Positions 21,417-63,387 of a stretch of 64,000 bases of DNA are shown here, piece after piece. A model generated the notes under the pieces. That model had not been told where the DNA came from. It saw nothing but the letters and a program-made list of their open reading frames with translations, and searched no databases. This DNA is from CBDCXE01 sp965223725 [NCBI: Nitrospinota bacterium] (GTDB lineage Bacteria > Nitrospinota_A > UBA7883), in the NCBI GenBank assembly GCA_965223725.1, contig CBDCXE010000006.1, forward strand, positions 248,001-312,000, written 5' to 3'. How positions within the stretch are numbered: the first letter of the stretch is position 1; every line of letters begins with the position of its first letter. The position numbers and the translations under genes are program-made.

Positions 21417-21445
21417 TTGACAAATCATTGATCAAAATGTAAATT
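21417..21445 (+). promoter_or_regulatory. Candidate sigma-70 promoter of the cobalamin import operon
   Basis: A perfect -35 hexamer TTGACA (21417-21422) and a -10-like TAAATT (21440-21445, four of six consensus bases) are separated by 17 bases. Transcription would start near 21451, exactly where the first riboswitch begins. Confidence 0.65.
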
Positions 21446-21450
21446 ACAAT

Positions 21451-21622: not shown

Positions 21623-21677
21623 CTTGTTATAAGCAAGCCTCGTGGTTTAGGCAAAATTGTGGATAAAATATCGGTAT

Positions 21678-21714: not shown

Positions 21715-21766
21715 GGTAAATGGTGGTTTCATCAAATATTTTTACCGCCATTTTGTATTAGTTTAT

Positions 21767-21905
21767 TGCGGATTTAAGGGAAGGAAGTTTTAAGCTTCCG
21801 CCGCCCCGCGACTGTAATCGGGACGAAAGCCGTAAATAGCCACTGCCATATGGGCAGGAAGGCGCGGTAAGTAGGATGATCGAAAGCCAGGAGACCTGAT
21901 CCGCA
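21767..21905 (+). promoter_or_regulatory. Cobalamin riboswitch 2
   Basis: The closing stem is TGCGGAT (21767-21773) with ATCCGCA (21899-21905). Inside are the GGAAGTTTTAAGCTTCCG hairpin, CCGCCCCGCGACTGT, GACGAAAGCC, GCCACTGCC, the GGAAGGCGCGG block and a canonical B12 box AGCCAGGAGACCTG at 21885-21898. The btuB start codon lies 36 bases after it. No T-run terminator follows, so control of translation through the GAGGGAGAG ribosome-binding site is the likely mode. Confidence 0.94.
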
Positions 21906-21941
21906 GTAGTTATCTGGTAAACATTTTCTCGAGGGAGAGAG

Positions 21942-44554: not shown

Positions 44555-44628
44555 TTTACTCGCTCCCCTTAAAGCTCAGGAATAGGGTTGGTGACAATGA
44601 ACAATTGTAAATAGTTGGCCTTTGCAAT

Positions 44629-46368: not shown

Positions 46369-46422
46369 TACAATTAACTGAACCAGGCGCCTGTAAACGC
46401 CTGGTTCAGACTGTGTAAACGA

Positions 46423-48024
46423 TTAGTAGATATCGTGCATGGTGTTGTACATGTTGAACTTGCCTGTCGGAGTATCCAGGCCCTTGATGCGAGCCTTTTC
46501 CTTCCTGGTTTTGTCATCAAATACAACTATCTCACCCTTTTTGCCCCATACGCTGACCCAGACTTCGTCGCCCGCCTTGTTATATTCCAGGTGGACAGCG
46601 CGAATTTTTGGATCATCAGAAATCTGGATCATCTGAACCGGTTTGGTCAGATCGTTGATATCGAGAACACCAATGCTCTGATGGGTCTTAAGATCAGTGT
46701 TAAGGGTGAAATCGAACCACAGATTTTTGCTGTTAGGATGAGTTTTGATGAACAGGTTGCCAGCGCCAGCGTCCAGCTCGATAGAGCGGACAACTTTCCA
46801 TGCGTTATCCGGATGCCCCTCTGGGTCGGTACCGAATACAGAGATCAACCCTTCACCGATATGACCGGTGGCGTGCACAGGGCCAAATTCAGGATCGACA
46901 AAGTTTGCGCCGCGTCCTGGGTGGGGCTTGGTGCCCACTTCAATGTTGGCAATCCTTTTTCTCTCCTTGGTGTCGATGACGACCATGGTGTCGCGCATGT
47001 TCGCCGCCGGCATGAAATAGCGATGGGTCGCGTCCCATCCGCCATCATGGAGAAAGCGCTCAGCCTCGATCATGGAGATTTTCAGGTTATCGATATTGGT
47101 ATAGTCAACCAGCCATACATATCCGGTCTCCTTGATATTGATAACCCATTCCGGGCTGTAGTGAGACGATACGATAGCCGCCACGCGGGGCTCCTGATGA
47201 TACTCGAATGTATCATAGGTATAACCGCGGGTGCTTACGATTTTTTTCGGCTCCAGTGTTTGCCCGTCGAGCACTACAAAATGCGGAGGCCAGTAACAGC
47301 CGACAACCGCCAGCTTGTCCTCAAAGCCTTTATATTTGCTGGTATCGACCGAGCGGGCTTCGGAGCAGGTTTTCACCGACGCCACAAGTGTTGGCTCTTT
47401 CATCCACAAATCGATCATGCCGACCTTGCCGTCCCGACCGATGGAGAGGAAATAGCGGCCCGAAGCGGATGACCTGAGGATATGTGTCGCATATCCGGAT
47501 GGCACCCTGCCGACGATTTCTTTTGTGTCGCCGTCAATGATGACGATTTTGCCTGCGTCACGCTCCACCACACCAAAAAAGTTCTGCCAGTTTCTTTTGT
47601 GCATTGGCTCTTTTGGACGCGCGTCCACCGGCACATTAACTTCCCATGATTCTTTCATGTCCGCCAGGGATATCTCTGGTGGCGCCACTGGTTTGTGCTG
47701 TAGGAATTTGGCCATCAGTGTAACATCTTCGGCGGTCATCATGCCTTGTTCACCAAAGTTTGGCATACCACCAGGAGTACCTTCGGTGATGATTTCACCC
47801 AAAGTCTCTGTGCCCATGTCCAATGTCTTTTTTGGCAGAAGGTTTGGGCCGGTGGCCCCCTTGCGTAAAGTTCCGTGGCAACCGGTACAAAGATTAAAAT
47901 AAATATCTGTTGCCTTTGTCATCTCATCGGATGAGAGTTGCGGAGCCTCCGCCTGCGCCGACAGAGCCGACCCTGTCACCAGCGCAAAAGCAAGAGTAAC
48001 GATTAATGTAGAAACTCTCTTCAT
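46423..48024 (-). CDS. nirS: Cytochrome cd1 nitrite reductase NirS
   Basis: The periplasmic enzyme that reduces nitrite to nitric oxide. The 533-residue precursor has a signal peptide (about 1-25), a cytochrome c domain with CTGCH (Cys46, Cys49, His50), and the d1 propeller. The d1 axial His is in GYATHILRSSASG (His181), and the conserved active-site motifs DATHRYF, KPHPGRGANF and HATGHIGEG are complete. It lies between a porin gene and the nirN-like gene on the same strand. No strong FNR/DNR box is visible in the 131 bases before it. Confidence 0.96.
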   Translation of the reverse strand: MKRVSTLIVTLAFALVTGSALSAQAEAPQLSSDEMTKATDIYFNLCTGCHGTLRKGATGPNLLPKKTLDMGTETLGEIITEGTPGGMPNFGEQGMMTAEDVTLMAKFLQHKPVAPPEISLADMKESWEVNVPVDARPKEPMHKRNWQNFFGVVERDAGKIVIIDGDTKEIVGRVPSGYATHILRSSASGRYFLSIGRDGKVGMIDLWMKEPTLVASVKTCSEARSVDTSKYKGFEDKLAVVGCYWPPHFVVLDGQTLEPKKIVSTRGYTYDTFEYHQEPRVAAIVSSHYSPEWVINIKETGYVWLVDYTNIDNLKISMIEAERFLHDGGWDATHRYFMPAANMRDTMVVIDTKERKRIANIEVGTKPHPGRGANFVDPEFGPVHATGHIGEGLISVFGTDPEGHPDNAWKVVRSIELDAGAGNLFIKTHPNSKNLWFDFTLNTDLKTHQSIGVLDINDLTKPVQMIQISDDPKIRAVHLEYNKAGDEVWVSVWGKKGEIVVFDDKTRKEKARIKGLDTPTGKFNMYNTMHDIY

Positions 48025-50566: not shown

Positions 50567-50922
50567 TGATTTGGTCCTTCAGCTCGCGAATATTTTATTA
50601 TTATACTTAACGAAATGTAGCAATGTTTCGTTAAATTTCAATGCAGTTCTAAACTTTCAGGCTTGGAAGATGGGATCGTAGAAATCGATTTCAATTCTTT
50701 AACTGTTACGGAATATTATAATAAAGCCTGTTTTTATTTCATAGCGTTTCAAAAACAACCAGAAACAGTCCAAACTAAATCTTCAGAAAATATTTGATTG
50801 TCACAACGCTCAAATATGATACCATTTGGGTCGGAAATTGCATTACTCTCATGGACCATAGAAAGGGTGATATGGTATTATTTCTTGGGAATCTGATCAA
50901 TTAAACGAGTTGAGGGACATTT
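50567..50922. other. Upstream region of the NO-reductase cluster
   Basis: About 355 A+T-rich bases with no gene. It contains the inverted repeat at 50790-50817. The remainder, including 50570-50780, shows no repeat or RNA structure that I can support. Confidence 0.55.
50790..50817 (+). promoter_or_regulatory. Perfect 8-bp dyad, candidate operator for the NO-reductase cluster
   Basis: ATATTTGA (50790-50797) and TCAAATAT (50810-50817) are perfect inverted repeats with a 12-base spacer, 105 bases before the first start codon. The half-sites resemble the TTGA/TCAA of FNR/DNR boxes, but their spacing is wider than the classical four bases. A repressor or a dimer binding one helical turn apart is possible. 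Confidence 0.5.
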
Positions 50923-51597
50923 ATGACGCAAGATAATCAACAAGAAGAAAAGAAGATCTCTTATTGGGAAATATTTTTTGATGATATTTTCCTGCTGTTT
51001 TTCCTCGGCACAGCGATTACTTTCATACTGTACACAGTATGGGGTCTTATGGAGCTGGCCAGCGCGGACCCATCCCCACTATTAAAGCCTGCAATTGTAG
51101 GCTCGGTTAATTCTGATGGCGCCATGGGCGGCGGCACAGAAGCGAGCGCCCCAGCGGCGGCGGCCGATAGCAAATCTGACAATTACTGGGATGACTGGGC
51201 CGATGGCAAGGCGCAGGGGCCGATGCCGGACTGTAATGTGAACGTTCTGGCCTTGGGTGGCGATGATATTCTGCAAGAGACTGTGGATATCTATTGCGGA
51301 GTAAAGCCAGGCAGCTACACATCGAAGATAAACCCTGCCGCTATGGATGTTTACAATAGCAAAGGCAGCGAATACCCGGATGGCAAGACCGGTGTACTGA
51401 TTTTCGAGGATATTGGGGTCGTATTCACCACGGACCATAAAGGAGGAGAGCCGATATACGATGTCCTGAAAATCGCAGATGAAACATCAGTCGCTTCCAG
51501 CGAGGCGGGTCATCCGCTGAATCCGGAGACTTGCGCAACCTGCCACGCCAGTTTTGACGGGGTTTGCAAAGGCTTTGTTTGCGGCAACAGGTTCTAG
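50923..51597 (+). CDS. Membrane-anchored single-heme c protein of the NO-reductase cluster
   Basis: A 224-residue protein. One transmembrane helix (about 22-43) follows a charged N-terminus; a Gly/Ala/Ser-rich linker (about 60-85) leads to a periplasmic domain whose only heme motif, CATCH (Cys204-His208), is close to the C-terminus. The arrangement YPDGKTG, a beta-rich middle and a late CxxCH recall cytochrome P460/c'-beta folds that bind NO, but the resemblance is weak and I cannot confirm the crosslinking Lys. Three more Cys follow or precede the heme (Cys104, Cys215, Cys220). It is the first gene of the cluster and may donate electrons to the CuA subunit. Confidence 0.6.
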   Translation: MTQDNQQEEKKISYWEIFFDDIFLLFFLGTAITFILYTVWGLMELASADPSPLLKPAIVGSVNSDGAMGGGTEASAPAAAADSKSDNYWDDWADGKAQGPMPDCNVNVLALGGDDILQETVDIYCGVKPGSYTSKINPAAMDVYNSKGSEYPDGKTGVLIFEDIGVVFTTDHKGGEPIYDVLKIADETSVASSEAGHPLNPETCATCHASFDGVCKGFVCGNRF

Positions 51598-51639
51598 ATA
51601 ATCAATAACATACGTTCCAACAATATGGAGAAGAGATAA

Positions 51640-52167
51640 ATGAGTGTAGCTTCGCCCCAACCGGGCTGGTGGAACAGTCCGCTGCATAAAGAGGAAAAGA
51701 TATGGATATTCCTTGCCCTGGTTTGGTGTATCCTGATAACAGTAGCCATGCCATGGTGGCATTTTGTGGGTAACCAGAACGCCTCGCAAGAGTATTATAC
51801 AATCGCTCCCGAGGATTTCGATATGCTTACCGATAACTTCATAGAAAAATACAAGACCGGCGAAGAGAGTGACGTGCCGGTTGTAACACCGCCGCCGGGC
51901 AGTGATATTTTTCTGAGGGGTCAGCAATGGTCATGGGACCCGATATTAAAACTTAAGGCCAACGAAACTTACAGACTGCATCTCTCTTCTATAGATGTGC
52001 TTCATGGTTTTTCTGTACACCCGATCAATATGAATTTCGAAGTTGTCCCCGGGTGGGATTATGTTTTAACAATCACGCCAACCACCAAAGGCACATTCGG
52101 CATTATTTGTAACGAGTTTTGCGGAATTGAGCATCATGCCATGATTGGCAAAATAATAGTAGAGTAA
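51640..52167 (+). CDS. CuA subunit II of a heme-copper NO reductase or oxidase
   Basis: A 175-residue subunit with one N-terminal transmembrane helix (about 20-42) and a cupredoxin domain. The CuA ligands are complete: His122 in LHGFSVHP, Cys157 and Cys161 in CNEFCGIEH, His165 and Met168. CuA accepts electrons from cytochrome c and passes them to the heme centre. A ribosome-binding site GGAGAAGAG precedes the ATG. The subunit is encoded nine bases before the catalytic subunit. The short, single-helix form is like subunit II of ba3-type oxidases and like the CuA subunit of the sNOR encoded by norSY-senC-orf1 clusters in ammonia oxidisers. Confidence 0.88.
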   Translation: MSVASPQPGWWNSPLHKEEKIWIFLALVWCILITVAMPWWHFVGNQNASQEYYTIAPEDFDMLTDNFIEKYKTGEESDVPVVTPPPGSDIFLRGQQWSWDPILKLKANETYRLHLSSIDVLHGFSVHPINMNFEVVPGWDYVLTITPTTKGTFGIICNEFCGIEHHAMIGKIIVE

Positions 52168-52176
52168 GGGGGATAA

Positions 52177-53697
52177 ATGGCAACTAAAGAACAAAAATTC
52201 AGGACATGCCCGGCAACCGGGCTGAAAGTGCATTCAAAGGCGGAAACGCTGGTTAAAATAAACGCTGTCACATCAATAGTGTTCCTGTTGGTCGGTGGTA
52301 TCATCGGCCTGGGTTTGGTATTGACCAGGTGGCAGGCGGTTCATCTGCTTAATGACGAGTGGTTCTATCGGCTGCTCTCGCTCCACGGCATCGCAATGCT
52401 GGTGGCGTGGATCATCTTTTTCGAAATGGCGGTGCTCTATTTCGCCAGCGCGATCATACTTAACTGCAGGCTAGCGTCACCCTGGGCGGGTTGGCTGCAA
52501 TATTTGCTTATGCTGGTTGGTGGCGCGATTGTCGCCGTAGAGATACTGCTCGGCAACGCAGATGTCATGTTCACATCGTATGTTCCTCTGCAGGCGCACC
52601 ACCTCTATTATCTTGGCATTATTCTGTTTGCTGTGGGCGCTATTGTTGGTTGCGCCGTGTTTTTCGCGACACTTTATGTGGCCAAAGCGGAGAAGACCTA
52701 TACAGGCTCCCTCCCGCTGGTAACATTCGGCGCGGCGGCGGCGGCCATAATCGCCATTATCACACTGGCGCATGGCGCTATTGTTTTTATCCCCACATGG
52801 CTATGGGCGGCGGGTATTATCCCGATGATGGACGCCGAGGTATACCGGCTCCTGTTCTGGGGTTTCGGGCATTCATCCCAGCAGATTAACGTATGCGCAA
52901 TGGTGGCGGTCTGGTATCTGCTTGCCACCCTTACCACTGGCGCCAGCCCGTTGAACGAAAAAGTCAGCCGTATAGCGTTTGTGCTGTACGTTCTGTTTAT
53001 ATGCATCGCTTCGGAGCATCATCTGCTTGTGGACCCAGGCTATTCCGCGGCCCACAAATCGTGGAACACCGGCTACTTCATGCATCTGGCGGTTCTGGCC
53101 AGCATGATCCATGCGTTCTCTGTTCCTGCGGCGGCTGAAGTGGCGCTGCGGAAAAAGGGTTATACCCGCGGCGCGTTCGAATGGCTCAAAAAGGCCCCAT
53201 GGGGCGATCCAGGCTGGTCGGCTTTGGCGATCTCCGTTGTCGGGTTTGGTTTCCTTGGTGGAATCACCGGTGTTGTTTATGGTACAGAGCAGGTTAACAT
53301 TATCGCTCATAACAACCTGAGGATACCTGGTCATTTCCACGCTACTGTGGTTGTGGGCACGTCCCTGGCGTTTATGGGCATCACATATTATGTGTTGCCG
53401 TTGATTTTCCGTCGTGAAGTCGCCTTCCCTGGAATAGCCAAGTTGCAGCCTTACATATTCGGGATTTCCATGAGTGTGTTCTCTATTGCAATGATGTTCG
53501 CTGGTGGTTTTGGCGTATCACGCAGGAGCTGGGACATGAGCGGTGTTGATTCACCGTTTGCTGTTGATTTTGGCCCTGTGGTTGATATCTCGCTGGCTGT
53601 TATGGGTATTGCCGGCGTTGGCGCTGTGATTGGTGGCGCGATGTACTGTATCATCGCAGTGGCGACCTTGTTAATCGGTAAAAAAATAACTGACTAG
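52177..53697 (+). CDS. Heme-copper catalytic subunit I, sNOR-like (active-site Tyr replaced by Gln)
   Basis: A 506-residue subunit with about 12-13 transmembrane helices, closest in layout to B-family (ba3) oxidases. Metal ligands are intact: His70 (low-spin heme), His232, His281 and His282 (CuB or FeB), and His386 and His388 in IPGHFH. In oxidases the copper-ligand helix reads His-x-x-x-Tyr; here it reads HSSQQ, so position 236 is Gln and the cross-linked Tyr needed for O2 reduction is absent. Loss of this Tyr is the mark of NO reductases in the superfamily. Neighbouring CuA, SenC and small-subunit genes match norSY-senC clusters. NO reduction to N2O is therefore the most likely reaction, inferred and not shown. 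Confidence 0.8.
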   Translation: MATKEQKFRTCPATGLKVHSKAETLVKINAVTSIVFLLVGGIIGLGLVLTRWQAVHLLNDEWFYRLLSLHGIAMLVAWIIFFEMAVLYFASAIILNCRLASPWAGWLQYLLMLVGGAIVAVEILLGNADVMFTSYVPLQAHHLYYLGIILFAVGAIVGCAVFFATLYVAKAEKTYTGSLPLVTFGAAAAAIIAIITLAHGAIVFIPTWLWAAGIIPMMDAEVYRLLFWGFGHSSQQINVCAMVAVWYLLATLTTGASPLNEKVSRIAFVLYVLFICIASEHHLLVDPGYSAAHKSWNTGYFMHLAVLASMIHAFSVPAAAEVALRKKGYTRGAFEWLKKAPWGDPGWSALAISVVGFGFLGGITGVVYGTEQVNIIAHNNLRIPGHFHATVVVGTSLAFMGITYYVLPLIFRREVAFPGIAKLQPYIFGISMSVFSIAMMFAGGFGVSRRSWDMSGVDSPFAVDFGPVVDISLAVMGIAGVGAVIGGAMYCIIAVATLLIGKKITD

Positions 53698-53721
53698 CTT
53701 TTTATAGGAGAAGGCAAGATT

Positions 53722-53847
53722 ATGGATACTAATGAAGAGCACAAACCGAAAGGGTCGTTTATTTTGATAATGATCTTTTTTATAACGTTTGTACTGTTTT
53801 ATTTGCTCAACTGGAAATATCTGTCGGAGATATGGATAGTAGGGTAA
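53722..53847 (+). CDS. 41-residue single-helix subunit (subunit IIa/CbaD-like)
   Basis: A 41-residue membrane protein encoded 24 bases after subunit I. A hydrophilic N-terminus ([11 protein letters not shown]) leads to one transmembrane helix (about 12-30) and ends in a short Trp/Tyr-rich tail. Such mini-subunits accompany ba3-type oxidases (subunit IIa). An AGGAGAAGG ribosome-binding site lies just ahead, and a strong terminator follows 19 bases after the stop, so it closes the core operon. It is too short for many gene finders and easily missed. Confidence 0.8.
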
Positions 53848-53866
53848 ACCCTGATTTATATAAATA

Positions 53867-53898
53867 CCCCGGTGGATTTTAATCTGCCGGGGTTTTTT
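53867..53898 (+). terminator. Rho-independent terminator after the core NO-reductase genes
   Basis: CCCCGG (53867-53872) pairs with CCGGGG (53887-53892); inner bases extend the stem. Six T (53893-53898) follow. It separates the heme c, CuA, catalytic and mini-subunit genes from the SenC-cytochrome b genes, suggesting separate or attenuated expression. Confidence 0.9.
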
Positions 53899-53964
53899 GC
53901 ATTAAATGCCGTTTATATGATAATAGTCATGGATAGATGTTCAGGCATATGAAATATTTCCTTA

Positions 53965-54825
53965 ATGACACACGTGGTTAATTCAATTATGGAAGTTGAC
54001 ATTTCGAGGCGGAATTACATCTGGCGTTTGTGGGTGGTCTGTTTGTTATCCAGCTTTGCCGTGGCCGCTTTCATGCATAACTCGCCAACACTGGCCCAAT
54101 CCGCGCTGGAAAGGTCAGAAGGCGCCGTCGGTCGAACCATGGACAACTATCGGCTGATAGACCAGGATGGCAACTTCATCCCGTTTTATACCTACAAGGG
54201 CCGCCCGGTGTTGCTGAACTTTATGTACACAGAATGCCTGGGTCCGTGCCAGCTTATAAGCGCCAATATACAGAAAATACAAAACGCGCTGGAGCCTGCG
54301 CTGGCCGAAGATTTGATGACCGTATCTGTCACCATCGATATAGACCATGACAAGCCGGAAGTGTTAAAAGAGTTCGGGCAGGAGTATACCGATGATTTTG
54401 ATAACTGGATCTTCGCCCGGGCGGATATGGAAACCTTAACACGAATGGTAGAGGATCTTGGGTTCCAGTACGAAATCAGCAAAACCGGTATGGAGCATAT
54501 GAACCGGATAACCATTATCGGACCGGACGGTGTGGTGAAAAAGCATTTTTATGGAATGGAGTACGATCCCGATGAGGTTGGAAACGCCATCCGGGATGTG
54601 GTGGAGGGTCGGACGCTGAGTGATAAATTTTCCGATTCACTCGACTGGGCCTTGATCTATTGCTCCAACTACGATCCAAAGACAAAAACCTATCGCATCG
54701 ATTACTTTTTTATCGTGACCGTTGTTTTCCAATATTTTCTGGTGATGGGCACACTGATATATATATTCCGGAATAACATAGTGCGGATGTGGATGAAGAT
54801 CACAGGAAAGGTCGCAAAAGATTAG
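53965..54825 (+). CDS. senC: SCO1/SenC copper chaperone with C-terminal membrane helix
   Basis: A 286-residue SCO1/SenC protein that delivers copper to, or reduces, CuA sites. An N-terminal helix (about 20-38) is followed by the thioredoxin-like domain. The copper motif CxxxC is present as CLGPC (Cys91, Cys95), with a partner His near residue 179. Unlike minimal SCO proteins it has a second hydrophobic helix at about 246-270. It stands behind the terminator of the core operon and directly before the cytochrome b fusion gene (two bases between stop and start). A second SCO gene lies at the end of the cluster. Confidence 0.9.
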   Translation: MTHVVNSIMEVDISRRNYIWRLWVVCLLSSFAVAAFMHNSPTLAQSALERSEGAVGRTMDNYRLIDQDGNFIPFYTYKGRPVLLNFMYTECLGPCQLISANIQKIQNALEPALAEDLMTVSVTIDIDHDKPEVLKEFGQEYTDDFDNWIFARADMETLTRMVEDLGFQYEISKTGMEHMNRITIIGPDGVVKKHFYGMEYDPDEVGNAIRDVVEGRTLSDKFSDSLDWALIYCSNYDPKTKTYRIDYFFIVTVVFQYFLVMGTLIYIFRNNIVRMWMKITGKVAKD

Positions 54826-54827
54826 AC

Positions 54828-56477
54828 ATGAATGATCAACAAATGAATAGTAAAGAAAATAACCAGGCGGCGCCCCGGGGGTTCAAACAGCTCAACCGGC
54901 TGGTGCCAACGGTATTGCGGCCCGGCAACTATATATTGATGCGTTTCCAGGAGTTTTTAAACCTGGTATTCGGGCCGGCGCTCAACCCGCTCTACTATCT
55001 GGGCGCTATCACATTTTTATTTTTGTGGGTTCTGCTGGCAACCGGAGTTTACCTTTATCTGTTTTATGAGATGAATCCGGTGGGGGCATACGAATCTGTT
55101 CAATATATGACCGAGGATCAGAAATATTACGGTGGAATAATCAGGTCGATGCACAGGTATGCATCCGACGGGATGGTCATCGTCATCGCCATCCATATGT
55201 TCCAGGTCTTTTTTTCCGACCGGTTCAGAAAATATCGTTGGATCGCCTGGGTGTCTGGCGCGGCTATTTTGCCGGTACTCTGGTTCGAAGGTATCTCCGG
55301 ATATTTCCTGGTTTGGGACGAGACAGCGCAGATCATTGCCATATCACTGGCTGACATAATGGAATATCTGCCTATCAATGTAGAGCCTGTGGCCAGGAAC
55401 TTTTTGACTAATACATCGGTCAACTCCTTGCTGTTTTTTGTGATGAATTATCTGCATTTGGCCATACCGGGGCTCCTGCTGATCCTGGCCTGGGTGCATT
55501 GCATGCGAATATCGATGCCGCTGATCAACCCGCCAAAGCAGGTCACCATCACGATCCTGGTTGCGTTGTTGGGCCTGTCGCTGGTTAAGCCAGCCGTAAG
55601 CGCGCCGCCGGCTGACCTGCTGAAGCTTGTGGGCGATGCGCCGGTGGACTGGTTTTACATGCCGATGTTTCCATTTTTGAAAGCGTTCGATATTTCCGCT
55701 GGAGAGGCATGGATAGGGGGTATTATTTTATTCGCCCTGTTCACCGCCATGCCCTGGATCGTGCCTGATCCGCGCAAATCAGCCAACCAGAAACCGGTCA
55801 TGGAACAGAACCCAATATCGGTGCATATGGATGATTGCAAAGGTTGCATGCTTTGCCAGGAGGCTTGCCCGTTTGAAGCGATGAAAATTGTGCCTTCGGA
55901 AAGCGGCGCCAAATCGGCCATTGACATTGTGGTGGCCCCGAGTCGATGCGCTGAATGCGGGTTTTGTGTTAACGCCTGCGAGTTCGGCGCAGTCTCCATG
56001 GGCGATTGGGACAGAAGCACAATCCAGGATCATATCGAAAGCTTGCTGGAACCGGACGGCTATGATAGCAAACCATCCACCATCGCGTTCATATGTGAGC
56101 GAAGCTTTAATCAGGACGGTTTTTTTACCGCCGACAATAAAAGATTGGCAAGCAACAACAACGTGGCCAGCATGGTAATACCTTGCATAGGAACGATCAG
56201 CCCGGCGCTGATAGATTACAGCCTGAACGCAGGCGCCAAAGGGGTGTTCATCATCAGTTGCCAGCCGCTGGATTGCCACTATCGCGAGGCGCGGCACAAG
56301 CTTCCGCTCAGTGAAGACGCCGACCCGAATAAATTTCTGATAGAAAACGTCGATCATGACGCGGTAAAGGTCTATCACGCGGCGCCCTTTGCGTCGAAAA
56401 TAATGATAGACGCCATCGACAAGTTCGATGAAGATATGAGAAACCGAACAAACAGTGGAGGCAATAACGATGGCTAA
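54828..56477 (+). CDS. Cytochrome b - 2x[4Fe-4S] ferredoxin - MvhD-like fusion
   Basis: A 549-residue membrane protein joining three modules. Residues about 40-320 are a cytochrome b/b6-type membrane domain; the bis-His heme ligands are seen in SMHRYASDG with VIAIHMF and in NYLHLAIPG with AWVHCM. Residues about 335-400 hold two ferredoxin motifs, CKGCMLCQEACP and CAECGFCVNAC. Residues about 420-500 match the MvhD/FlpD iron-sulfur domain (IPCIGTISPALI and SCQPLDCHYREARHK), but the first CxxC pair of that domain is reduced to CERS. It could pass electrons between quinones and soluble or periplasmic carriers, as a link to the NO reductase. The ATG at 54828 is preferred over a longer overlapping reading. 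Confidence 0.8.
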   Translation: MNDQQMNSKENNQAAPRGFKQLNRLVPTVLRPGNYILMRFQEFLNLVFGPALNPLYYLGAITFLFLWVLLATGVYLYLFYEMNPVGAYESVQYMTEDQKYYGGIIRSMHRYASDGMVIVIAIHMFQVFFSDRFRKYRWIAWVSGAAILPVLWFEGISGYFLVWDETAQIIAISLADIMEYLPINVEPVARNFLTNTSVNSLLFFVMNYLHLAIPGLLLILAWVHCMRISMPLINPPKQVTITILVALLGLSLVKPAVSAPPADLLKLVGDAPVDWFYMPMFPFLKAFDISAGEAWIGGIILFALFTAMPWIVPDPRKSANQKPVMEQNPISVHMDDCKGCMLCQEACPFEAMKIVPSESGAKSAIDIVVAPSRCAECGFCVNACEFGAVSMGDWDRSTIQDHIESLLEPDGYDSKPSTIAFICERSFNQDGFFTADNKRLASNNNVASMVIPCIGTISPALIDYSLNAGAKGVFIISCQPLDCHYREARHKLPLSEDADPNKFLIENVDHDAVKVYHAAPFASKIMIDAIDKFDEDMRNRTNSGGNNDG

Positions 56478-57015
56478 GCCTGGGGTGAAATCGAATCGTT
56501 TATCCATAGCCGGGGTTTTGGTGCTATTGTCGCCCGCTATACTGGTCTATTTCTTTTCGACCACACCATCCTATACATATCACGAAGAAGATGAGGCGAT
56601 GCTTGTGGTATCGTTTAAAAAAACAACTGAGAAAGTAACGCTGTGCGATGAAGCCGAGCTAAAAAAGTTTAAGGAAACGGCGAAAGGACGGCGCAAGCAT
56701 ATGCGCAAAAACCGTGGGAAATGCGGTAGCCGTGAGCGGGTGCCGATGGAAATGGTGGTAAACATTGACAGTGAAGAAAAACTTCGAAAGCTTGTTGATC
56801 CATCCGGATTACGGTCAGATGGTGTGGTATACATCTATGAACGGTTCTACCTTACACCGGGCGAGCACAGGTTAGTGGTTTCGACCCGTGATTACCGGGA
56901 AGATGAAGAGACAGAGATCCAGACGTTCGATCAAACTGTATCGATTGGCCCGCAACGTATCGTAGTGATCGAGTTCGACCCACAGAAGAACGATTATGTC
57001 GTCATCGACAAATGA
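56470..57015 (+). CDS. Membrane-anchored hypothetical protein of the NO-reductase cluster
   Basis: A 181-residue protein not recognised. One transmembrane helix (about 12-30) is followed by a periplasmic, Lys/Arg- and Glu-rich domain with a beta-sandwich-like C-terminus (YERFYLTPGEHRLVVSTRDY). The ATG at 56470 overlaps the cytochrome b fusion gene by eight bases and is preceded by GGAGG with eight bases spacing. Its two Cys are at about residues 57 and 86. The position between the cytochrome b fusion and a SCO gene is like the orf1 that follows senC in norSY clusters, but I cannot confirm homology. Confidence 0.65.
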   Translation: MAKPGVKSNRLSIAGVLVLLSPAILVYFFSTTPSYTYHEEDEAMLVVSFKKTTEKVTLCDEAELKKFKETAKGRRKHMRKNRGKCGSRERVPMEMVVNIDSEEKLRKLVDPSGLRSDGVVYIYERFYLTPGEHRLVVSTRDYREDEETEIQTFDQTVSIGPQRIVVIEFDPQKNDYVVIDK

Positions 57016-57644
57016 GCGGCAAACCGTCCACGCGCATTGTTGCGCGTATTATCGGGGTTGTCGTAACAGCGCTGGCGATTGCGCTGACCATCTATGCTCT
57101 GAATAGATCATTTCTCCATAAGCCGGAACAGGCCACTATCCACCAAACAGAGCCACCATTAATAGCGCCCGGTGGTGATTTTACACTACTAAGCCACACC
57201 GGCGCAAAACTTGGCCTGAGCGAATTGCGGGGCAAGCTGGTCCTGATATTTTTCGGGTATACATTCTGCCCCGATATTTGTCCGGTACGGCTGAACGACA
57301 TCGACAGCGCCCTTGGCATGCTGGGCGACCGGGCCAGCGATGTTCAGGTCCTGTTTATAACGGTGGACCCGAAACGGGATACACCTGAAGTGTTGAGCGA
57401 GTATGTGGCGCATTTCAACCAGACGTTTATCGGGTTGACCGGATCGGATGATGAAATAAAAACAGTGGCAGAGAAGTACGCGATCCGCTATATCCTCGAT
57501 AAGCCAGACGGGGATGGAGACTATACAGTCGGGCATTCGTCACACTTGGCGCTGGTCGGCGCCGATGGCAAACTGAAAAAAACAATCTCGTATCAAACGA
57601 AGACAGAAGAGATCGCCAGAATATTGGAAGAGCATCTTCCATAG
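57012..57644 (+). CDS. SCO1/SenC copper chaperone (second copy)
   Basis: A 210-residue SCO1 protein with an N-terminal membrane helix (about 9-30) and a single thioredoxin-like domain. The copper ligands are Cys86 and Cys90 in FCPDICP, with His near residue 175 in VGHSSHLAL. It overlaps the hypothetical gene by four bases. Two SCO genes for one CuA subunit may split the work between copper delivery and thiol reduction, or serve the catalytic metal as well. It is the last plus-strand gene of the cluster; a histidine kinase gene ends 12 bases away on the other strand. Confidence 0.92.
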   Translation: MSGKPSTRIVARIIGVVVTALAIALTIYALNRSFLHKPEQATIHQTEPPLIAPGGDFTLLSHTGAKLGLSELRGKLVLIFFGYTFCPDICPVRLNDIDSALGMLGDRASDVQVLFITVDPKRDTPEVLSEYVAHFNQTFIGLTGSDDEIKTVAEKYAIRYILDKPDGDGDYTVGHSSHLALVGADGKLKKTISYQTKTEEIARILEEHLP

Positions 57645-57656
57645 GCGCCAGGATAA

Positions 57657-58721
57657 TCAACCAAGCGGCAGATAGATAATCACGCTAGCGCCTTTCCCTA
57701 TTTCCGATTCGATATCGATCACGCCGCCATGGTTGCCGATGATATTGCGCACGATTGAAAGACCAAGTCCAGAGCCACTTTTTTTTGTGGTAAAGAAAGG
57801 GTCGAAAATATATTTCAGATCGTCCGCCTCGATCCCCTGCCCCTGGTCGGCGATGGTGATACGTACCTTCTCCGACAGGCTTTTGATATATTTAGTCGTA
57901 ATATTAATGCTGGCGCCATTGTCGGAGGCTTGCACGGCGTTTAACAGAATATTGAGCAACGCCTGATAGATCTTCGTTTCATCCATCGGCACATGGGGCG
58001 TCTTCTCATCCAGCTTGGTGTTGACAGTTATATTATTATCATCGCAAGCGGTTTTCACAGTGGCCATAACCCGGTCGATCACTTTACCAAGCTCCACCCG
58101 GGCGATTTCCAGCTTCATGGGTTTGGCATAATCGAGCAGCTCCGACATTATCCTTTCCAGATTATCCACCTCTTCTTCCGCAATTTCGAAATGCTCTACA
58201 TCTTCACCTTTTGGCTCCAGCCGCTCTTTTAATATTGCGATATTCATTTTTACCGACGAAAGCGGATTGCGAATTTCGTGCGCTATGCCTGTGGCCAACC
58301 TGCCCAGCGAAGCCATCCGCTCCTCGTTTTTTAGTTTTTCTTCCAGCAGTTGCATCTCTGTTACATCGTGGATGATGCCCATCACGCCCACTACTTTGCC
58401 ATTATCACCATGCAAGGGCGACGATTTGACGATCACTTTATGGTTCTGGCCCCGTTTATCCATGATCTCCATTTCGAAAGATTGCAACACACCTTGCATG
58501 GTCAGGGCGCTCTCCCGTTTGCCGATTCGCTTTGTGTTCAGAATGTTCACCAACGGCTGGCCGATAAGCTCATCCTTATCGTAGCCCCATTCTTTTATGT
58601 TGTCGTTGATGTACATGAACCTGCCCTCCATATCGATGGCCCAGATGAGGTCACTGGCATTGTCAAGCAGGGTTTTATAGAACCCTTCTTTCATTGATTT
58701 GTCATTTATGCTGTTTTTCAT
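57657..58721 (-). CDS. PAS-domain sensor histidine kinase
   Basis: A 354-residue soluble kinase. A PAS domain (about 10-125, with YKTLLDNASDLIWAID) is followed by the HisKA dimerisation domain with the phospho-acceptor His148 in GIAHEIRNPLSS, and the ATPase domain with the N box NILLNAVQAS, the G1 box DQGQGI and the G2 box GSGLGLSI. There are no transmembrane helices, so it senses a cytoplasmic signal through PAS; no heme- or flavin-binding signature is evident. It lies two bases after the corrinoid fusion gene, and the response regulator of the same operon is the expected partner. The input might relate to the corrinoid proteins. Confidence 0.9.
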   Translation of the reverse strand: MKNSINDKSMKEGFYKTLLDNASDLIWAIDMEGRFMYINDNIKEWGYDKDELIGQPLVNILNTKRIGKRESALTMQGVLQSFEMEIMDKRGQNHKVIVKSSPLHGDNGKVVGVMGIIHDVTEMQLLEEKLKNEERMASLGRLATGIAHEIRNPLSSVKMNIAILKERLEPKGEDVEHFEIAEEEVDNLERIMSELLDYAKPMKLEIARVELGKVIDRVMATVKTACDDNNITVNTKLDEKTPHVPMDETKIYQALLNILLNAVQASDNGASINITTKYIKSLSEKVRITIADQGQGIEADDLKYIFDPFFTTKKSGSGLGLSIVRNIIGNHGGVIDIESEIGKGASVIIYLPLG

Positions 58722-58723
58722 AG

Positions 58724-61243
58724 TCAGGATACTGCCCCAGCGTTTGCCAGATATTCAGTATCGGCGCATATCAGTGTTAACTCTTCCCTGGCTGGCCGCG
58801 ACAGCAGGCATAACCGGGCGGCGCTCGCGGCGCCGTCCTTAATAAACGTTGTGTCAGCAACGGTGGGGATCATATCTATCGCCTGCGCGCTTTGGATGTC
58901 CACGATCACGCCAAGCGCTCCGGATATGATGACAGAGCCGATATCTTTCGCCTCCAGCGATACTTTATCCAGCAATGCAAAGATTGCTGATCGATAACTG
59001 TATGCCGCCTGAATCGTCGATTGAACCTGCGCCGATGAAACGGTGATCGGCTCGTACAGCGCAGTTTTATGTTTCGGTACCAGCAGATATCGGTCATCCG
59101 ATATTTTACTGCTCCTCGATGCATTGATAAAGTTACCACAATGGTCTGTTATACCTTGTTTTATAAATTCAGATGCAATATCCATTAGCGCCCCCCCGGC
59201 TAAACCCGCAGGCGCCGTATCCTGCAAAGTTTTAAATGTTATCTTGCCATCGTTTGGTATGCAGAGCTTATAGATAAGCCCAGGCTGGGTAGACTGGTCG
59301 AGATAATCCACCATATTCGGGGCCGCGGCGCATACAATGCCAGCTTCGGTTTCAAGCGCTATAGACCCGGCCCCGCCCACCTGAATGTACAAGGCAGGCT
59401 TTTGAGCGCTGTATCCGCCTGATACCAAAATATTAGCCGCAGGGCCAACCACAGGGCCAGCTCCACCTGTGGGCATTAGATCGATCCTGCAATTTTCGTT
59501 TACCTTCAATTTTGTGTTTAGGCCGACATCACGCGCAGTTAAATTTTTCCATTCGTTGTTTGGTTTCCCCTGATCGGGCGCTTGAATATCAAATAATGTA
59601 TATATGGACGGGTTGCTGATTATAACCATGTTGAGGATCGCATCACTGTCGATCGAATAGCCGGGCTGGAGCCATGCTAAGATTTCATTTATAGATTTGA
59701 ATAGTTCATCCTGGAGCTTGCCATTCAGTGATGGGTCACCCCCCAACCTTTCCATCATTGCTCTGGACGCAGATTCATATGTCGTCAGCCGATTTTTCGA
59801 CGCGGCCACACACTCCAGCGCTCCACCCCGCATGTTGTGGGTATATATAGTTATATTTGCGTCTGTTATATCTATCGCCAGTCCGTATGGATGGCCCGAC
59901 ATGGCCGGGTCAACCAAGGGCGCAAAGCCATACCTGTCAAGCTGGTCATCAATCGATTTTTCGTACAGTTCATCCGGCACAAACATGCCGAGCGGGAACC
60001 TGCGCAGAGAGTAAGGAATATAAATTTCCATATTCTCCTCGATTGGCGTATCGAGAGCTAATGACCCTTCTGGCACGTCTTTAGTGGAAGGGTTGGTGAT
60101 AGTTATGCCAGCCCGTCGCGCAGTATCGATAATAGTATTGCCAGCGTTGACAAATATCTTTTTCCTGTGGGGTAAAAAAGTGACTTCGAGCTCACCCCCA
60201 TCATGATGATTGGAATATTCAAAATCTTCGGCTTCATCCATGGAAGCGTTGTAGAGCGCCCTGATATTTCCCAGCTTCGAGTTCAGCGGCACTTCGCATC
60301 CGCTGCCGACGATAAACCGCTCTGTCGCCCGGGTGGTTTTCAGCAAAGCGCGCGCTTCCTTATATAAATCGCTTTCCGAACCCTCCAGAAACATGTTCGG
60401 TTTGATGTTGCCGTTGATCACTGTTGTGTCAGAGTATTGCAGCATGCCAGATATCGGCACAGGATAATCGACCGTTGTGATATCAGCGCGGACAGATGTG
60501 ATAATGGCGAGGTTGCTTTGTATCGGGCCTGCCACCGAATACCAGCTGATGATTTCAGGCCTGCTCTGTTTGATATCGGAAAAAATATTACAGACCCGCT
60601 GGGCTTCGAACTGTGTGAACATGTTGGCGGGCAACACAGCAGGTGACGCCGCTGGATCAAAAATCATTATTCCATCGGCGCCCTCTTTCGCCAGCGCCTG
60701 GGCGAATGTCAGCGAAACCTGAGCGCAGAAATCGAGGATCACTTCGAACTGGTCTGGATGGTCCACAATCATATAGAGCATCTTCTCTATATCCATGATC
60801 CTCGACGCCAGCGTTATCGGCCCTATGACATTGGCCACCACCGGGAAGGCGCCGTTGGCCTCCCCTTTCAATAATCGGAGGGCCTTTATAATCTCCGGCA
60901 TTCTGCCGTCTCTGTATGGGTCAGGGATATCCCTGTTTTCTATATCGGACGGGCGCTCCACAATATGGGTATTGATATAGGGATAGTTATTTTCCGGAAA
61001 GGTGAGCTGGCAACCGAGCGCTTCCGCTTCAACGCACAGGTCGGATATGGACAGCAATAAATCACTACCTGTTTTGGCCCTGGCGTCTATCTGGCATTGC
61101 GCCAGCAAATCGCCGTTTTTTACATAGTCGACCACCCGCTCTCCGGCAAGGGTGGCGGTGACGCCGATCATTTCTGTGGCCACAGGGACCCTGTCCGTCT
61201 GGCGGAAATTTAAAACGGAGCTGATTCTATCGTATGAGGTCAA
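58724..61243 (-). CDS. UroD-like methyltransferase - degenerate ferredoxin - RACo-like ASKHA fusion
   Basis: An 839-residue protein of three parts. Residues about 3-340 match the UroD/MtaA/CmuA fold of methylcobamide methyltransferases: SYDRISSVLNFRQTDRVPV opens it and GSGCEVP keeps one zinc-ligand-like Cys, but the usual HxC motif reads WYSVAGP. Residues about 351-418 align with the ferredoxin domain of corrinoid activator RACo, yet the four cluster Cys are missing. Residues about 450-839 align with the RACo ASKHA ATPase (SGALGVIVDIQSAQAIDMIP near the end), but the phosphate loops DIGTTT and DIGTNGE read DITDAN and VGGAGS. The start is uncertain: TTG at 61241-61243 limits overlap with the corrinoid gene; TTG at 61309 would add 22 residues. 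Confidence 0.75.
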   Translation of the reverse strand: MTSYDRISSVLNFRQTDRVPVATEMIGVTATLAGERVVDYVKNGDLLAQCQIDARAKTGSDLLLSISDLCVEAEALGCQLTFPENNYPYINTHIVERPSDIENRDIPDPYRDGRMPEIIKALRLLKGEANGAFPVVANVIGPITLASRIMDIEKMLYMIVDHPDQFEVILDFCAQVSLTFAQALAKEGADGIMIFDPAASPAVLPANMFTQFEAQRVCNIFSDIKQSRPEIISWYSVAGPIQSNLAIITSVRADITTVDYPVPISGMLQYSDTTVINGNIKPNMFLEGSESDLYKEARALLKTTRATERFIVGSGCEVPLNSKLGNIRALYNASMDEAEDFEYSNHHDGGELEVTFLPHRKKIFVNAGNTIIDTARRAGITITNPSTKDVPEGSLALDTPIEENMEIYIPYSLRRFPLGMFVPDELYEKSIDDQLDRYGFAPLVDPAMSGHPYGLAIDITDANITIYTHNMRGGALECVAASKNRLTTYESASRAMMERLGGDPSLNGKLQDELFKSINEILAWLQPGYSIDSDAILNMVIISNPSIYTLFDIQAPDQGKPNNEWKNLTARDVGLNTKLKVNENCRIDLMPTGGAGPVVGPAANILVSGGYSAQKPALYIQVGGAGSIALETEAGIVCAAAPNMVDYLDQSTQPGLIYKLCIPNDGKITFKTLQDTAPAGLAGGALMDIASEFIKQGITDHCGNFINASRSSKISDDRYLLVPKHKTALYEPITVSSAQVQSTIQAAYSYRSAIFALLDKVSLEAKDIGSVIISGALGVIVDIQSAQAIDMIPTVADTTFIKDGAASAARLCLLSRPAREELTLICADTEYLANAGAVS

Positions 61244-61913
61244 CTTTGTGACTGTTTTGGTTGCAAAAGAAATCCAGTCCGTCAAAAGCGTCCTGGGCAA
61301 CGTAGTCAAGGTTGAGGGACTCGCATGAGCTTTGCTGGATCGCCGCGCCGCCCCCGATTACAGCGATATGTCCAAATCCTTTTTCGGCAAGCTGTGTCTT
61401 GATATGCTCGATATTGCCCATGCTCACAGTCATCAGGCTCGATACGCCGATAAAGTCAGCGTTTTCCTTGATAGCGGTATCCACAAACTTTTCCACCGGC
61501 ACATCCTTGCCCAGGTCGATCACCCGGAAATTGTTGAACCGACAGAGGGTCGCGACGATATGTTTGCCTAAATCATGAACATCGCCCAGGATAGCGCCGA
61601 TGACTATTGTAGCGATGGTTTTACTCGGTTGGTTCATATTGAATGCGTCGGCTGCGTCATCCATATTCTCTTTCATCCGGGTGGCGATGCATTCATCCAC
61701 CACTTCGACCATCGCCCTGGACGCCAGGAGAACATCGAGAAGCTGAAAATTTTCGATAGTGCATTTATTGCGCAATACCTCCAGCCCTTTAGAGATGGCG
61801 TCTACAACCTCCTCAACCGGGCAATCCTCTGTCAGCAGGTCGTTGGCGCAGGAGACCGCCTCGACATTTTCTCCTTTTTGAACCAGATAGGATAGCTCGT
61901 CAAGTTTGTCCAT
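61227..61913 (-). CDS. Corrinoid (B12-binding) protein, MtaC/MtbC type
   Basis: A 228-residue corrinoid protein. Residues about 1-90 form the helical cap and about 95-220 the Rossmann-like B12 domain. The cobalt-ligand motif DxHxxG is intact as DVHDLG (His113), with later VIGGGA typical of the base-off binding site. It resembles the corrinoid subunits of methanol or methylamine methyltransferases, yet no substrate-specific methyltransferase (MtaB, MttB or like) is present in the window. It is followed by the fusion protein, whose gene overlaps it by about 17 bases. Adenosyltransferase and cobalamin import genes lie elsewhere in the window. Confidence 0.88.
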   Translation of the reverse strand: MDKLDELSYLVQKGENVEAVSCANDLLTEDCPVEEVVDAISKGLEVLRNKCTIENFQLLDVLLASRAMVEVVDECIATRMKENMDDAADAFNMNQPSKTIATIVIGAILGDVHDLGKHIVATLCRFNNFRVIDLGKDVPVEKFVDTAIKENADFIGVSSLMTVSMGNIEHIKTQLAEKGFGHIAVIGGGAAIQQSSCESLNLDYVAQDAFDGLDFFCNQNSHKVDLIR

Positions 61914-61941: not shown

Positions 61942-63387
61942 TTAAGTCTGGTCGTCCATCAGATAGTAATGCATCGGTTTAATGCCATATTTTTTAATTT
62001 TTCTATCCAGCCTGGGCCTCGTTATACCCAGCACATCACAAGCCTTGCCTTTGTGCCATTTTGTATGCGCCAGCGCCTTGGCCACCTGTTCCTTTTCAAC
62101 ATCCGCTAATGTTCTTGGCTGGTACCTGTCCAGGGCTTGTGGCGACAGGCCCATACTGTCGGCGATTTCCTCATCAATATTCATATGTTCAGGATGCGTC
62201 ATCGACCTTAACGTTTTTTCGGTCAATTGTTCACCACGACTCATTATAACAGTTTGAGTAATGAAATTTTCAAGTTGCCTCACATTTCCTTTCCACGGAT
62301 GCTCGGCGAGGAAGTCAAGGGCGTCTTCCGATATATATTTTACAGACCTGCCCGTTTCTTTGTTTGCCTTGGCGATAAAATACAAGGCCAGATCTGGAAT
62401 ATCTTCTTTCCTCTCTCTCAATGGCGGGATATGGATGCTGATGACATTGAGCCGAAAATATAGATCTTCACGAAACTGACCAAGCCGGATAGACTCCAGC
62501 AGATCCTTGTTGGTGGCTGATATGATCCTGCACTCGCATTTTAGCTTCTCCTTACCACCGACCCGCTCGAACTCCCTCTCCTGGAGCACACGCAACAGTT
62601 TGGCCTGGAGGTTAAAATCCATCTCGCCTATCTCATCCAGGAATATGGTCCCGGAGCCAGCCTGGGCGAATTTACCCTCTTTTTGTGTGACCGCGCCAGT
62701 GAATGATCCTTTTTCGTGACCAAACAGCTCCGACTCCAGCAGTGTGCCGACGATGGCGGAGCAGTTCACCGGTATAAATGGCTCCGATTTGCTTTCGGAG
62801 TTAAGATGAATAGAGTTCGCCACCAGTTCTTTACCTGTGCCGCTTTCGCCTGTGATATGGACCGTGGTTTTGCTCATGGAGACCATGCCGACGGTTTTGA
62901 ACACTTCTTTCATCACATAGCTTTTACCAATGAACTGATTAGCCGCGTCCATATCGTCCGGCACAGAAACAAATGAAGATGTGTCGTGCGCCTTGTTTTT
63001 GAAAAAATCTGTGGCGTTACTAATGGCGCCGTTCATCTCTTCAATATCCAGCGGTTTATGGATATAGTCGCCCACACCGTTCTGTACAGCCTTGACCGTT
63101 GATTCCATGTTTGGGTAGGCGGTGATTATTATTGAATAGTAGTTATCTCCCTTATCCCTGATCTCTTGCAACAGCTCCACGCCGTTGGCGTCTGGCAACC
63201 GAACATCGAGCACCACAATGGCGGAGCTTAGCTGGTCCAGCCTGCTCATGCCGTCCACAGCCGTCATGGCTGTGTAAACTTCGAAACCTTGACGTTCGAA
63301 GTGGAGCTTTAACGTTTTACCGATAGATTTGTCATCATCTATAATGACGATAGGCTCCTTGGCGCCTCCGCTTTCGATACCTTCCAT
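61942..63387 (-). CDS. Sigma-54-dependent response regulator (NtrC family)
   Basis: A 481-residue activator of sigma-54 promoters. The receiver domain (about 10-130) has the phospho-acceptor Asp61 in VVLDVRLP. The AAA+ domain shows Walker A GESGTGKE, the sigma-54 loop GSFTGA (a variant of GAFTGA) and the Walker B region GTIFLDEIGEM. The C-terminus has an Fis-type helix-turn-helix (KACDVLGITRPRLDRKIK). The ATG at 63387 is preceded by AAAAGGAAT and is preferred to an upstream reading of 25 extra residues. Its partner is probably the PAS kinase of this operon; targets may be the corrinoid operon itself or genes outside. Confidence 0.93.
   Translation of the reverse strand: MEGIESGGAKEPIVIIDDDKSIGKTLKLHFERQGFEVYTAMTAVDGMSRLDQLSSAIVVLDVRLPDANGVELLQEIRDKGDNYYSIIITAYPNMESTVKAVQNGVGDYIHKPLDIEEMNGAISNATDFFKNKAHDTSSFVSVPDDMDAANQFIGKSYVMKEVFKTVGMVSMSKTTVHITGESGTGKELVANSIHLNSESKSEPFIPVNCSAIVGTLLESELFGHEKGSFTGAVTQKEGKFAQAGSGTIFLDEIGEMDFNLQAKLLRVLQEREFERVGGKEKLKCECRIISATNKDLLESIRLGQFREDLYFRLNVISIHIPPLRERKEDIPDLALYFIAKANKETGRSVKYISEDALDFLAEHPWKGNVRQLENFITQTVIMSRGEQLTEKTLRSMTHPEHMNIDEEIADSMGLSPQALDRYQPRTLADVEKEQVAKALAHTKWHKGKACDVLGITRPRLDRKIKKYGIKPMHYYLMDDQT

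What the first reader, a model, noticed from the sequence alone, without database searches (positions are those of the whole stretch)
58724..61243. Three-module corrinoid fusion with every cofactor motif altered
One chain joins a UroD/MtaA-like domain, a RACo-like ferredoxin domain and a RACo-like ASKHA domain. The overall folds align over long stretches, but the zinc HxC motif, the four ferredoxin cysteines and both ATP phosphate loops are replaced. The protein looks like a deliberate composite that lost methyl transfer, cluster binding and ATP hydrolysis, while its neighbour keeps an intact corrinoid site. It may be a scaffold or sensor that reads the state of a corrinoid cofactor. I know of RACo and MtaA as separate proteins but not of this degenerate fusion.
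Basis: partly seen in the sequence, partly recalled or inferred. Interest (0 to 1): 0.85.

Follow-up and report, generated by a model that had tools for sequence, protein, structure and literature searches.

The report
Corrinoid-reading two-component system controlling oxidases
The odd fused protein is one part of a conserved four-gene switch in which vitamin-B12 methyl-transfer machinery seems to have been turned into the sensor of a bacterial signalling system that probably controls respiratory oxidase genes; in this organism the built-in B12 recharging half has decayed.

Summary
The minus-strand protein at 61243-58724 joins a UroD/MtaA-like domain, a cysteine-less ferredoxin-like stretch and a RACo-like ASKHA domain whose phosphate loops are replaced. 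One zinc-type cysteine (C316) is kept.

It is not a unique composite. Relatives in 17 of 24 genomes of one phylum sit, as far as contigs reach, in the same order: sigma-54 response regulator, corrinoid protein, fusion, PAS histidine kinase. In 12 of the 17 the ferredoxin cysteines and ATP loops are intact as far as read. In one clade they erode stepwise; the window lost both, and its closest relative lost the RACo half entirely. Two zinc ligands are replaced in all 18 proteins, so zinc-dependent methyl transfer was probably given up first.

The best reading is a corrinoid-dependent input module of a two-component system. A shared palindrome precedes a bd-like oxidase operon in 10 of 17 relatives, mostly with a sigma-54-like site at a set distance. 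Its best match in the 64-kb window lies before the adjacent cytochrome oxidase operon. Signalling, DNA binding and the signal (Co redox state, O2/NO) are inferred. I saw no described precedent in nine searches of an open-access library.

The parts
58724..61243 (-). fusion protein FUS: zinc-less UroD/MtaA-like domain (res. 1-333), cysteine-less ferredoxin-like stretch (about 350-415), RACo-like ASKHA domain with altered loops (about 450-833)
61227..61913 (-). corrinoid (B12-binding) protein CP with GDVHDLG motif
61942..63387 (-). sigma-54-dependent NtrC/AtoC-type response regulator RR (ORF can be extended to 63462)
57657..58721 (-). PAS-HisKA-HATPase histidine kinase HK, no membrane domain matched
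50606..50633 (+). predicted RR-binding enhancer (palindrome TTAACGAAA...TTTCGTTAA); best match in the window to the motif of the relatives
50827..50842 (+). sigma-54-like -24/-12 site TGGGTCGGAAATTGCA, 96 bases before 50923
50923..57644 (+). predicted target operon: CATCH-containing protein, cytochrome oxidase subunits II and I, SCO1/SenC, cyt b-ferredoxin-FlpD fusion, unknown, SCO1/SenC

Best explanation
The fusion and the corrinoid protein form the input module of a two-component system. CP holds a corrinoid; the UroD domain, which lacks two of three zinc ligands, caps it and reads its state instead of moving a methyl group to a zinc-held thiol; in the ancestral form the RACo half re-reduces oxidised corrinoid with ATP, resetting the sensor. 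The cytosolic PAS kinase reads the CP-fusion complex and phosphorylates the NtrC-type regulator, which binds a palindromic enhancer and, with sigma-54, switches on a terminal-oxidase operon: a bd-like oxidase/cytochrome c operon in relatives, the adjacent heme-copper oxidase operon in the window. In the clade of the window the reset half has decayed, perhaps because stand-alone RACo proteins in the same cell can do the job. Shown here by sequence: architecture, motif states, gene order, tree, enhancer-like and promoter-like sites. Inferred: corrinoid loading, complex formation, kinase control, DNA binding, and the signal itself (most likely cobalt redox or ligand state, hence O2, NO or redox poise).
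For: Order RR-CP-FUS-HK in the 17 relatives as far as contigs reach. Catalytic residues conserved in 16 kinases and 14 regulators aligned, one of the latter partial. CP motif GD(V/I)H(D/E)LG in all 17 CP sequences aligned. Zinc His/Cys replaced in 18/18, while five UroD paralogues from three of these genomes keep HICG, four of them from an unfused UroD-UroD-CP-RACo operon. bd-like oxidase gene on the contig of the cassette or of its RR in 14 of 17 genomes, in varying orientation. Enhancer motif score of 19.5 or more in 11 of 20 oxidase upstream regions tested (8 scored leave-one-out, 3 not in training: window, G006, G009); 95% of 241 other upstream windows score 13.9 or less. In 9 of the 10 relatives' regions among the 11 the best sigma-54-like site lies 143-168 bases from the palindrome; 207 in the window. 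In the window the motif's best hit, 22.9, exceeds the maxima of all 15 shuffled windows (9.3-21.4) and lies before the neighbouring oxidase operon.
Against: No biochemical data; no complex was modelled. The sigma-54-like site of the window is not strong (13.5 of 15.7) and its spacing is longer; in three of the nine relatives with the set spacing (L002, L008, G009) the site scores only 11.5-11.8, about the shuffle mean of c0 upstreams, 11.25. Of 18 coxA orthologues only L067 (14.7), and less clearly L069 (14.0) and L070 (12.9, about 300 bases upstream), have a sigma-54-like site upstream, and L067 has no enhancer hit in the 296 bases held, so oxidase control in the window rests on one palindrome and one site. 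Seven of 17 relatives' regions lack a good motif match: L001, L003, L028, L031, G010, G012, and L005 (16.3, spacing 244). Genome-wide the degenerate pattern is hardly enriched over its reversed control (132 versus 99 matches in 24 genomes). Other sigma-54 regulators surely exist in these genomes (recalled, not counted). The window and G006 lack an intact in-cis reset.
Confidence: 0.6

Rival explanations
1. A methyl-donor sensor: the UroD domain still demethylates some methylated compound on to the corrinoid without zinc, RACo repairs the corrinoid, and the kinase responds to methyl-cobalt.
For: UroD + CP + RACo is the part list of a corrinoid methyltransferase, and an unfused UroD-UroD-CP-RACo operon exists in G004 and G022. 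The UroD domain is better conserved than the RACo half between the window and every relative with both, so it does something specific.
Against: Two zinc ligands replaced in 18/18; linked genes and predicted targets that were scanned are oxidases, cytochromes and cytochrome-maturation genes, not methyl metabolism.
Confidence: 0.2
2. For the window protein itself the RACo half is a functionless relic; only the UroD domain, CP and the kinase matter.
For: The closest relative (L006/L035, UroD domain 67% identical) has a 345-aa UroD-only protein followed directly by the kinase; the RACo branch of the window is 1.40 against 0.25 for the other parts.
Against: A stop-free stretch of about 390 codons with a Pfam hit at E 4e-25 persists. 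In another degraded lineage the stretch is still constrained: dN/dS 0.26 over 465 codons, dS 0.54, L007 versus G023. No close relative of the window is held to test it there.
Confidence: 0.4
3. CP-FUS is an ordinary enzyme that merely shares an operon with an unrelated two-component pair.
For: The parts have enzyme relatives.
Against: The order is kept, with the kinase right after the fusion wherever the contig reaches it, although flanks rearrange; zinc ligands lost everywhere, ATP site and cluster lost in one clade.
Confidence: 0.12
4. The module measures B12 supply or light rather than cobalt redox or ligand state.
For: The window carries a B12-uptake-like gene cluster with two cobalamin riboswitches; B12-binding regulators that respond to light (CarH) and B12-binding co-regulators (AerR) exist (listing).
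Against: A RACo module would have no evident use in a light sensor or an apo/holo switch (inference); riboswitches may already cover B12 supply.
Confidence: 0.1

Closest known systems
RACo / AcsV / RamA (DUF4445) reductive activators of corrinoid proteins
   Same: ASKHA fold and, in 12 of 17 relatives as far as read, the ferredoxin cysteines and ATP loops; a corrinoid protein is encoded next door
   Different: fused behind a UroD domain; in the window cluster and ATP sites are gone and the linker is deleted; sits in a two-component operon
MtaA/CmuA/MtbA family (UroD-fold methylcobamide:thiol methyltransferases)
   Same: UroD fold, third zinc-type Cys, best PDB sequence match 4ay7
   Different: zinc His and Cys replaced by Ser and Ala in all 18 proteins; scores well below NCBIfam cut-offs
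MtbC/MttC/MtaC/MetH-type corrinoid proteins
   Same: helical cap plus B12-binding domain, GDVHDLG motif
   Different: tied to a histidine kinase and sigma-54 regulator; no intact-motif methyltransferase gene beside it in the window
NtrB/NtrC- and AtoS/AtoC-type sigma-54 two-component systems
   Same: PAS-HisKA-HATPase kinase and receiver-AAA-HTH regulator; predicted enhancer 143-207 bases upstream of a -24/-12-like site
   Different: two corrinoid-machinery genes sit between regulator and kinase
B12-binding regulators CarH and AerR
   Same: a corrinoid-binding domain used for gene regulation
   Different: those act directly on DNA or on a DNA-binding protein (abstract starts in the listing only); here a methyltransferase-type CP with a RACo module and a kinase

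Membership tests
MtaA/CmuA methyltransferases | UroD (TIM-barrel) fold | tested here: met
   Pfam E 2e-61; 4ay7_A Z 34.6, rmsd 2.8, 325 aligned
MtaA/CmuA methyltransferases | zinc site H-x-C ... C (ligand identity recalled) | tested here: not met
   S236 and A238 replace His and Cys, C316 kept; same in 18/18
RACo/RamA corrinoid activators | ASKHA domain with middle region | tested here: met
   RACo_C_ter E 4e-25, Raco_middle E 0.001 but below cut-off; 3zyy_Y Z 26.2, rmsd 5.9, 381 aligned
RACo/RamA corrinoid activators | iron-sulfur cysteines of the ferredoxin domain | tested here: not met
   0 of 4 in the window; kept in the relatives other than L006/L035 where the stretch can be read
RACo/RamA corrinoid activators | ATP phosphate loops (DIGTTT, DIGTNGE) and GxFG | tested here: not met
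   DITDAN, QVGGAGS, GALG in the window; intact in 12 of 17 relatives as far as read
RACo/RamA corrinoid activators | ATP-dependent Co(II) to Co(I) reduction | not testable with these tools
   needs biochemistry
Methyltransferase-type corrinoid proteins (CP gene) | D-x-H-x-x-G corrinoid motif (recalled) | tested here: met
   GDVHDLG in the window; GD(V/I)H(D/E)LG in all 17 aligned
NtrC-type two-component system (HK, RR genes) | phospho-acceptor His, HATPase, receiver Asp, sigma-54 AAA domain, Fis-type HTH | tested here: met
   Pfam and conserved columns
NtrC-type two-component system (HK, RR genes) | phosphotransfer and enhancer-dependent activation | not testable with these tools
   enhancer and -24/-12-like sites predicted only

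The most novel reading that the evidence does not exclude
Corrinoid methyltransferase machinery was recruited as a resettable redox or gas sensor: protein-bound cobalt is the sensing element, a zinc-less UroD cap reads it, a built-in RACo recharges it, and a PAS kinase/sigma-54 regulator pair uses the readout to choose and switch on terminal oxidases. In one clade the recharger became a pseudo-enzyme and was finally deleted, with recharging moved to other proteins.
Probability: 0.35. Interest if true: 0.88.

Novelty: new variant of a known kind. Interest (0 to 1): 0.72.

Why it matters
Corrinoid proteins and their ATP-driven activators are known as parts of C1 metabolism. A conserved cassette that wires them to a kinase and a sigma-54 regulator would be a new use of the cofactor. 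It would also give bd-like oxidase operons, which resemble clusters reported as conserved in Nitrospinae, Nitrospirae and anammox bacteria but of uncertain activity (PMC8026999, passages seen), a candidate dedicated regulator with a testable DNA site. The graded series from intact RACo to no RACo is a natural experiment on which part of the sensor is essential.

Tried and rejected
Rejected: motifs present but shifted (alignments); pseudogene or frameshift (open frame of 839 codons; constraint in a related degraded lineage); a single-genome oddity (17 relatives, plus a degraded RACo remnant and kinase in G023 at a contig edge); reversed orientation (one plus frame).

Considered and left weak: the link between decay and stand-alone RACo genes. 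6 of 6 genomes with degraded or absent in-cassette RACo (G004, G006, G007, G021, G022, G023) show at least one other RACo match against 4 of 12 with an intact one (Fisher p 0.013), but the six are relatives and not independent, the assemblies may be incomplete, and the stand-alone genes looked at (G004, G022) belong to a methyltransferase-like operon of their own. Sigma-54-like sites before the nir-like genes (49567, minus) and before cytochrome c (63817) were scanned; the first has no enhancer match next to it, and the second region has no good site. A degenerate enhancer pattern searched over 24 genomes was too unspecific by itself. In the L001/L003/L028 upstream regions I see only another, different inverted repeat. 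The upstream regions of RR (12, kept apart from the 241) hold a separate motif match of 21.6 in L030 and weaker ones of 14.5-18.3 in L028, L002 and L003, a hint of autoregulation not followed up. A second kinase precedes RR in L008, L030, L033 and L034 (dCache domain seen in L030, the only one scanned); its part is unknown. RR is broken into two ORFs in L008 and L033, cause not examined. VIA-align rows were filled mostly by the UroD domain, so absence of other folds says nothing. Spread beyond this phylum could not be tested: the single genome-contig scan used window-specific peptides (10 loci) and found only 10 of the 17 relatives seen. Literature searches showed no described system of this kind in the titles and abstract starts listed; four of them had more hits than the 20 listed; the library holds open-access papers only.

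Full report
What is there. The protein lies on the minus strand, 61243-58724, 839 aa. Upstream, in the same direction, are a sigma-54 response regulator (63387-61942) and a corrinoid protein (61913-61227, overlapping the fusion by 17 bases); downstream, two bases on, is a PAS histidine kinase in which no membrane domain was matched (58721-57657). Domain and fold searches confirm UroD/MtaA in the first 333 residues and RACo in the C-terminal part, with the caution that the model has mean pLDDT 66.

Relatives. One scan of genome contigs gave 10 loci, and a profile search of the UroD domain found orthologues in 17 of the 24 held genomes of the phylum that contains them (record titles of the ten say Nitrospinota, Nitrospinales, Nitrospinaceae, Nitrospirae or only 'bacterium'; the phylum name itself was not told). 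In all 17, as far as contigs reach, the corrinoid protein precedes the fusion, the regulator precedes that, and the kinase follows. Cut cases: L009 has fusion and kinase only, with a regulator of this kind on another contig; L034 ends inside the fusion, so its kinase is not seen; L008 ends inside the fusion, and the other half with the kinase is on another contig. In L008 and L033 the regulator is broken into two ORFs. An eighteenth genome, G023, shows a degraded RACo stretch followed by the kinase at a contig edge.

A decay series. In 10 relatives the RACo half is read in full and its ferredoxin cysteines and ATP loops are intact: L001, L002, L003, L005, L009, L010, L028, L029, L031, L032. 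L034 is cut at a contig end and intact as far as read; L008 is split over two contigs and what can be read of both halves looks intact. L030 has cysteines but half-altered ATP loops; L033, L004 and L007 keep cysteines and have lost the ATP loops; the window has lost both; L006/L035, its closest relative (UroD 67% identical), is a UroD-only protein of 345 aa. In an unrooted tree of UroD, CP, HK and RR columns the intact set is separated from the decaying set with 100% bootstrap support, and the RACo tree has a branch of 1.40 for the window against 0.25 in the other. In the degraded pair L007/G023 the stretch is still constrained (dN/dS 0.26, dS 0.54, 465 codons) but far less than the kinase (0.046). 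Between L004 and L007 the ASKHA part has 0.34 against 0.09 for UroD, with dS above 1; 12 domain comparisons in four intact pairs give 0.056-0.111. So the decayed half was not free to drift there; for the window no close relative is held.

What was lost first. The zinc His and Cys are replaced (Ser and Ala at the aligned positions) and the third Cys is kept in all 18 fusion proteins. G004 and G022 carry an unfused operon UroD-UroD-CP-RACo-oxidoreductase, and the five UroD paralogues aligned, four from these operons and one from G006, keep HICG. The parts of the cassette therefore look like a corrinoid methyltransferase system that gave up zinc-dependent methyl transfer when it was wired to the two-component pair, and lost its reducing half later in one clade. 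RACo-type (DUF4445) proteins are linked by mutant fitness to B12 reactivation in bacteria (PMC5764234, passages), and Co(I) is described as highly sensitive to autoxidation, with ATP-driven re-reduction (PMC6739815, passages).

What it may control. In 14 of 17 genomes a bd-like oxidase gene lies on the same contig as the cassette or as its regulator, upstream or downstream and in either direction; where scanned it is followed by cytochrome c genes. This resembles a cluster described for Nitrospinae, Nitrospirae and anammox bacteria (PMC8026999, passages); orthology was not tested. Several upstream regions share a palindrome, roughly AACRAAnnGTT...TTTYGTT, with a sigma-54-like site downstream. 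A 28-base matrix from eight such sites gives 19.5 or more in 11 of 20 tested oxidase upstream regions (the eight scored leave-one-out), against 13.9 for the 95th percentile of 241 other upstream windows; the five background windows above 19.5 are four genes sharing those intergenic regions and the window's own target. The best sigma-54-like site lies 143-168 bases from the palindrome's centre in 9 of the 10 relatives' regions (not G017) and at 207 in the window; six of the nine score 13.0 or more out of 15.7, three only 11.5-11.8, which is shuffle level. Three of the 11 were outside the matrix: G009, G006 (a more distant bd-like gene, score 31.0) and the window. In the window the best of all positions on both strands is 50606, score 22.9, next best independent 16.8, maxima of 15 shuffled windows 9.3-21.4. 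It starts 221 bases before a sigma-54-like site (50827) that is 96 bases before the first gene of the oxidase operon which runs towards the cassette and ends beside it. The bd-like gene tested from G016, where no cassette was found, scores 0.6. Results against: seven relatives' regions are weak or lack the motif (L001, L003, L028, L031, L005, G010, G012), 15 of 18 coxA orthologues have no sigma-54-like site above 11.9, and the degenerate pattern is hardly enriched genome-wide (132 against 99 for its reversed control).

Reading. A corrinoid protein with a cap that lacks two zinc ligands, a reactivase that is dispensable in evolution, a kinase next door wherever it can be seen and oxidase promoters as the likely output fit a sensor of cobalt state, and so of oxygen, NO or redox poise, better than an enzyme. 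The signal and every protein contact remain inference. That the organism imports B12 is suggested by a btu-like cluster with two cobalamin riboswitches in the window.

Novelty. In nine searches of the open-access library the titles and abstract starts listed (at most 20 a search) showed no UroD-RACo fusion and no corrinoid/RACo-coupled two-component system; subscription papers and preprints are not covered. Each component belongs to a known family, so I call it a new variant of a known kind.

Noticed in passing
window 21442-21630 and 21754-21917 (+): Two cobalamin riboswitches in tandem before a btuB-like receptor gene (21942-23867) and btuF/D/C-like genes (25597-28396).
   Followed up: partly
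window 42226-48024 (-): Three genes with a cytochrome D1 heme domain and a NirJ-like radical SAM gene: nitrite reduction or heme d1 genes near the oxidase operon.
   Followed up: no
window 54789-56477 (+): One chain joins cytochrome b, two 4Fe-4S motifs and an FlpD/MvhD-like domain inside an oxidase operon.
   Followed up: no
window 50923-51597 (+): First gene of the oxidase operon has a long C-terminal part with CATCH; among 18 orthologous operons only L067 (G005) matched it over its full length, and L067 also has a strong sigma-54-like site.
   Followed up: partly
L030 12409-14157 (-), also L008, L033, L034: A second histidine kinase sits just before the regulator gene; the L030 one has a dCache domain.
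   Followed up: no
L126 3397-8382 (-), L128 2881-8858 (+): Unfused UroD-UroD-CP-RACo-GFO/IDH operon: a likely corrinoid methyltransferase system of unknown substrate.
   Followed up: partly
L002 13911-19330 (-) and eight other loci: ResA/CcmH-like genes with an FGE-sulfatase-domain protein (scanned in L002) lie next to the cassette in 9 of 17 loci.
   Followed up: no
L030 12242 (+): A further enhancer-motif match (21.6) lies upstream of the regulator gene itself, a hint of autoregulation.
   Followed up: no
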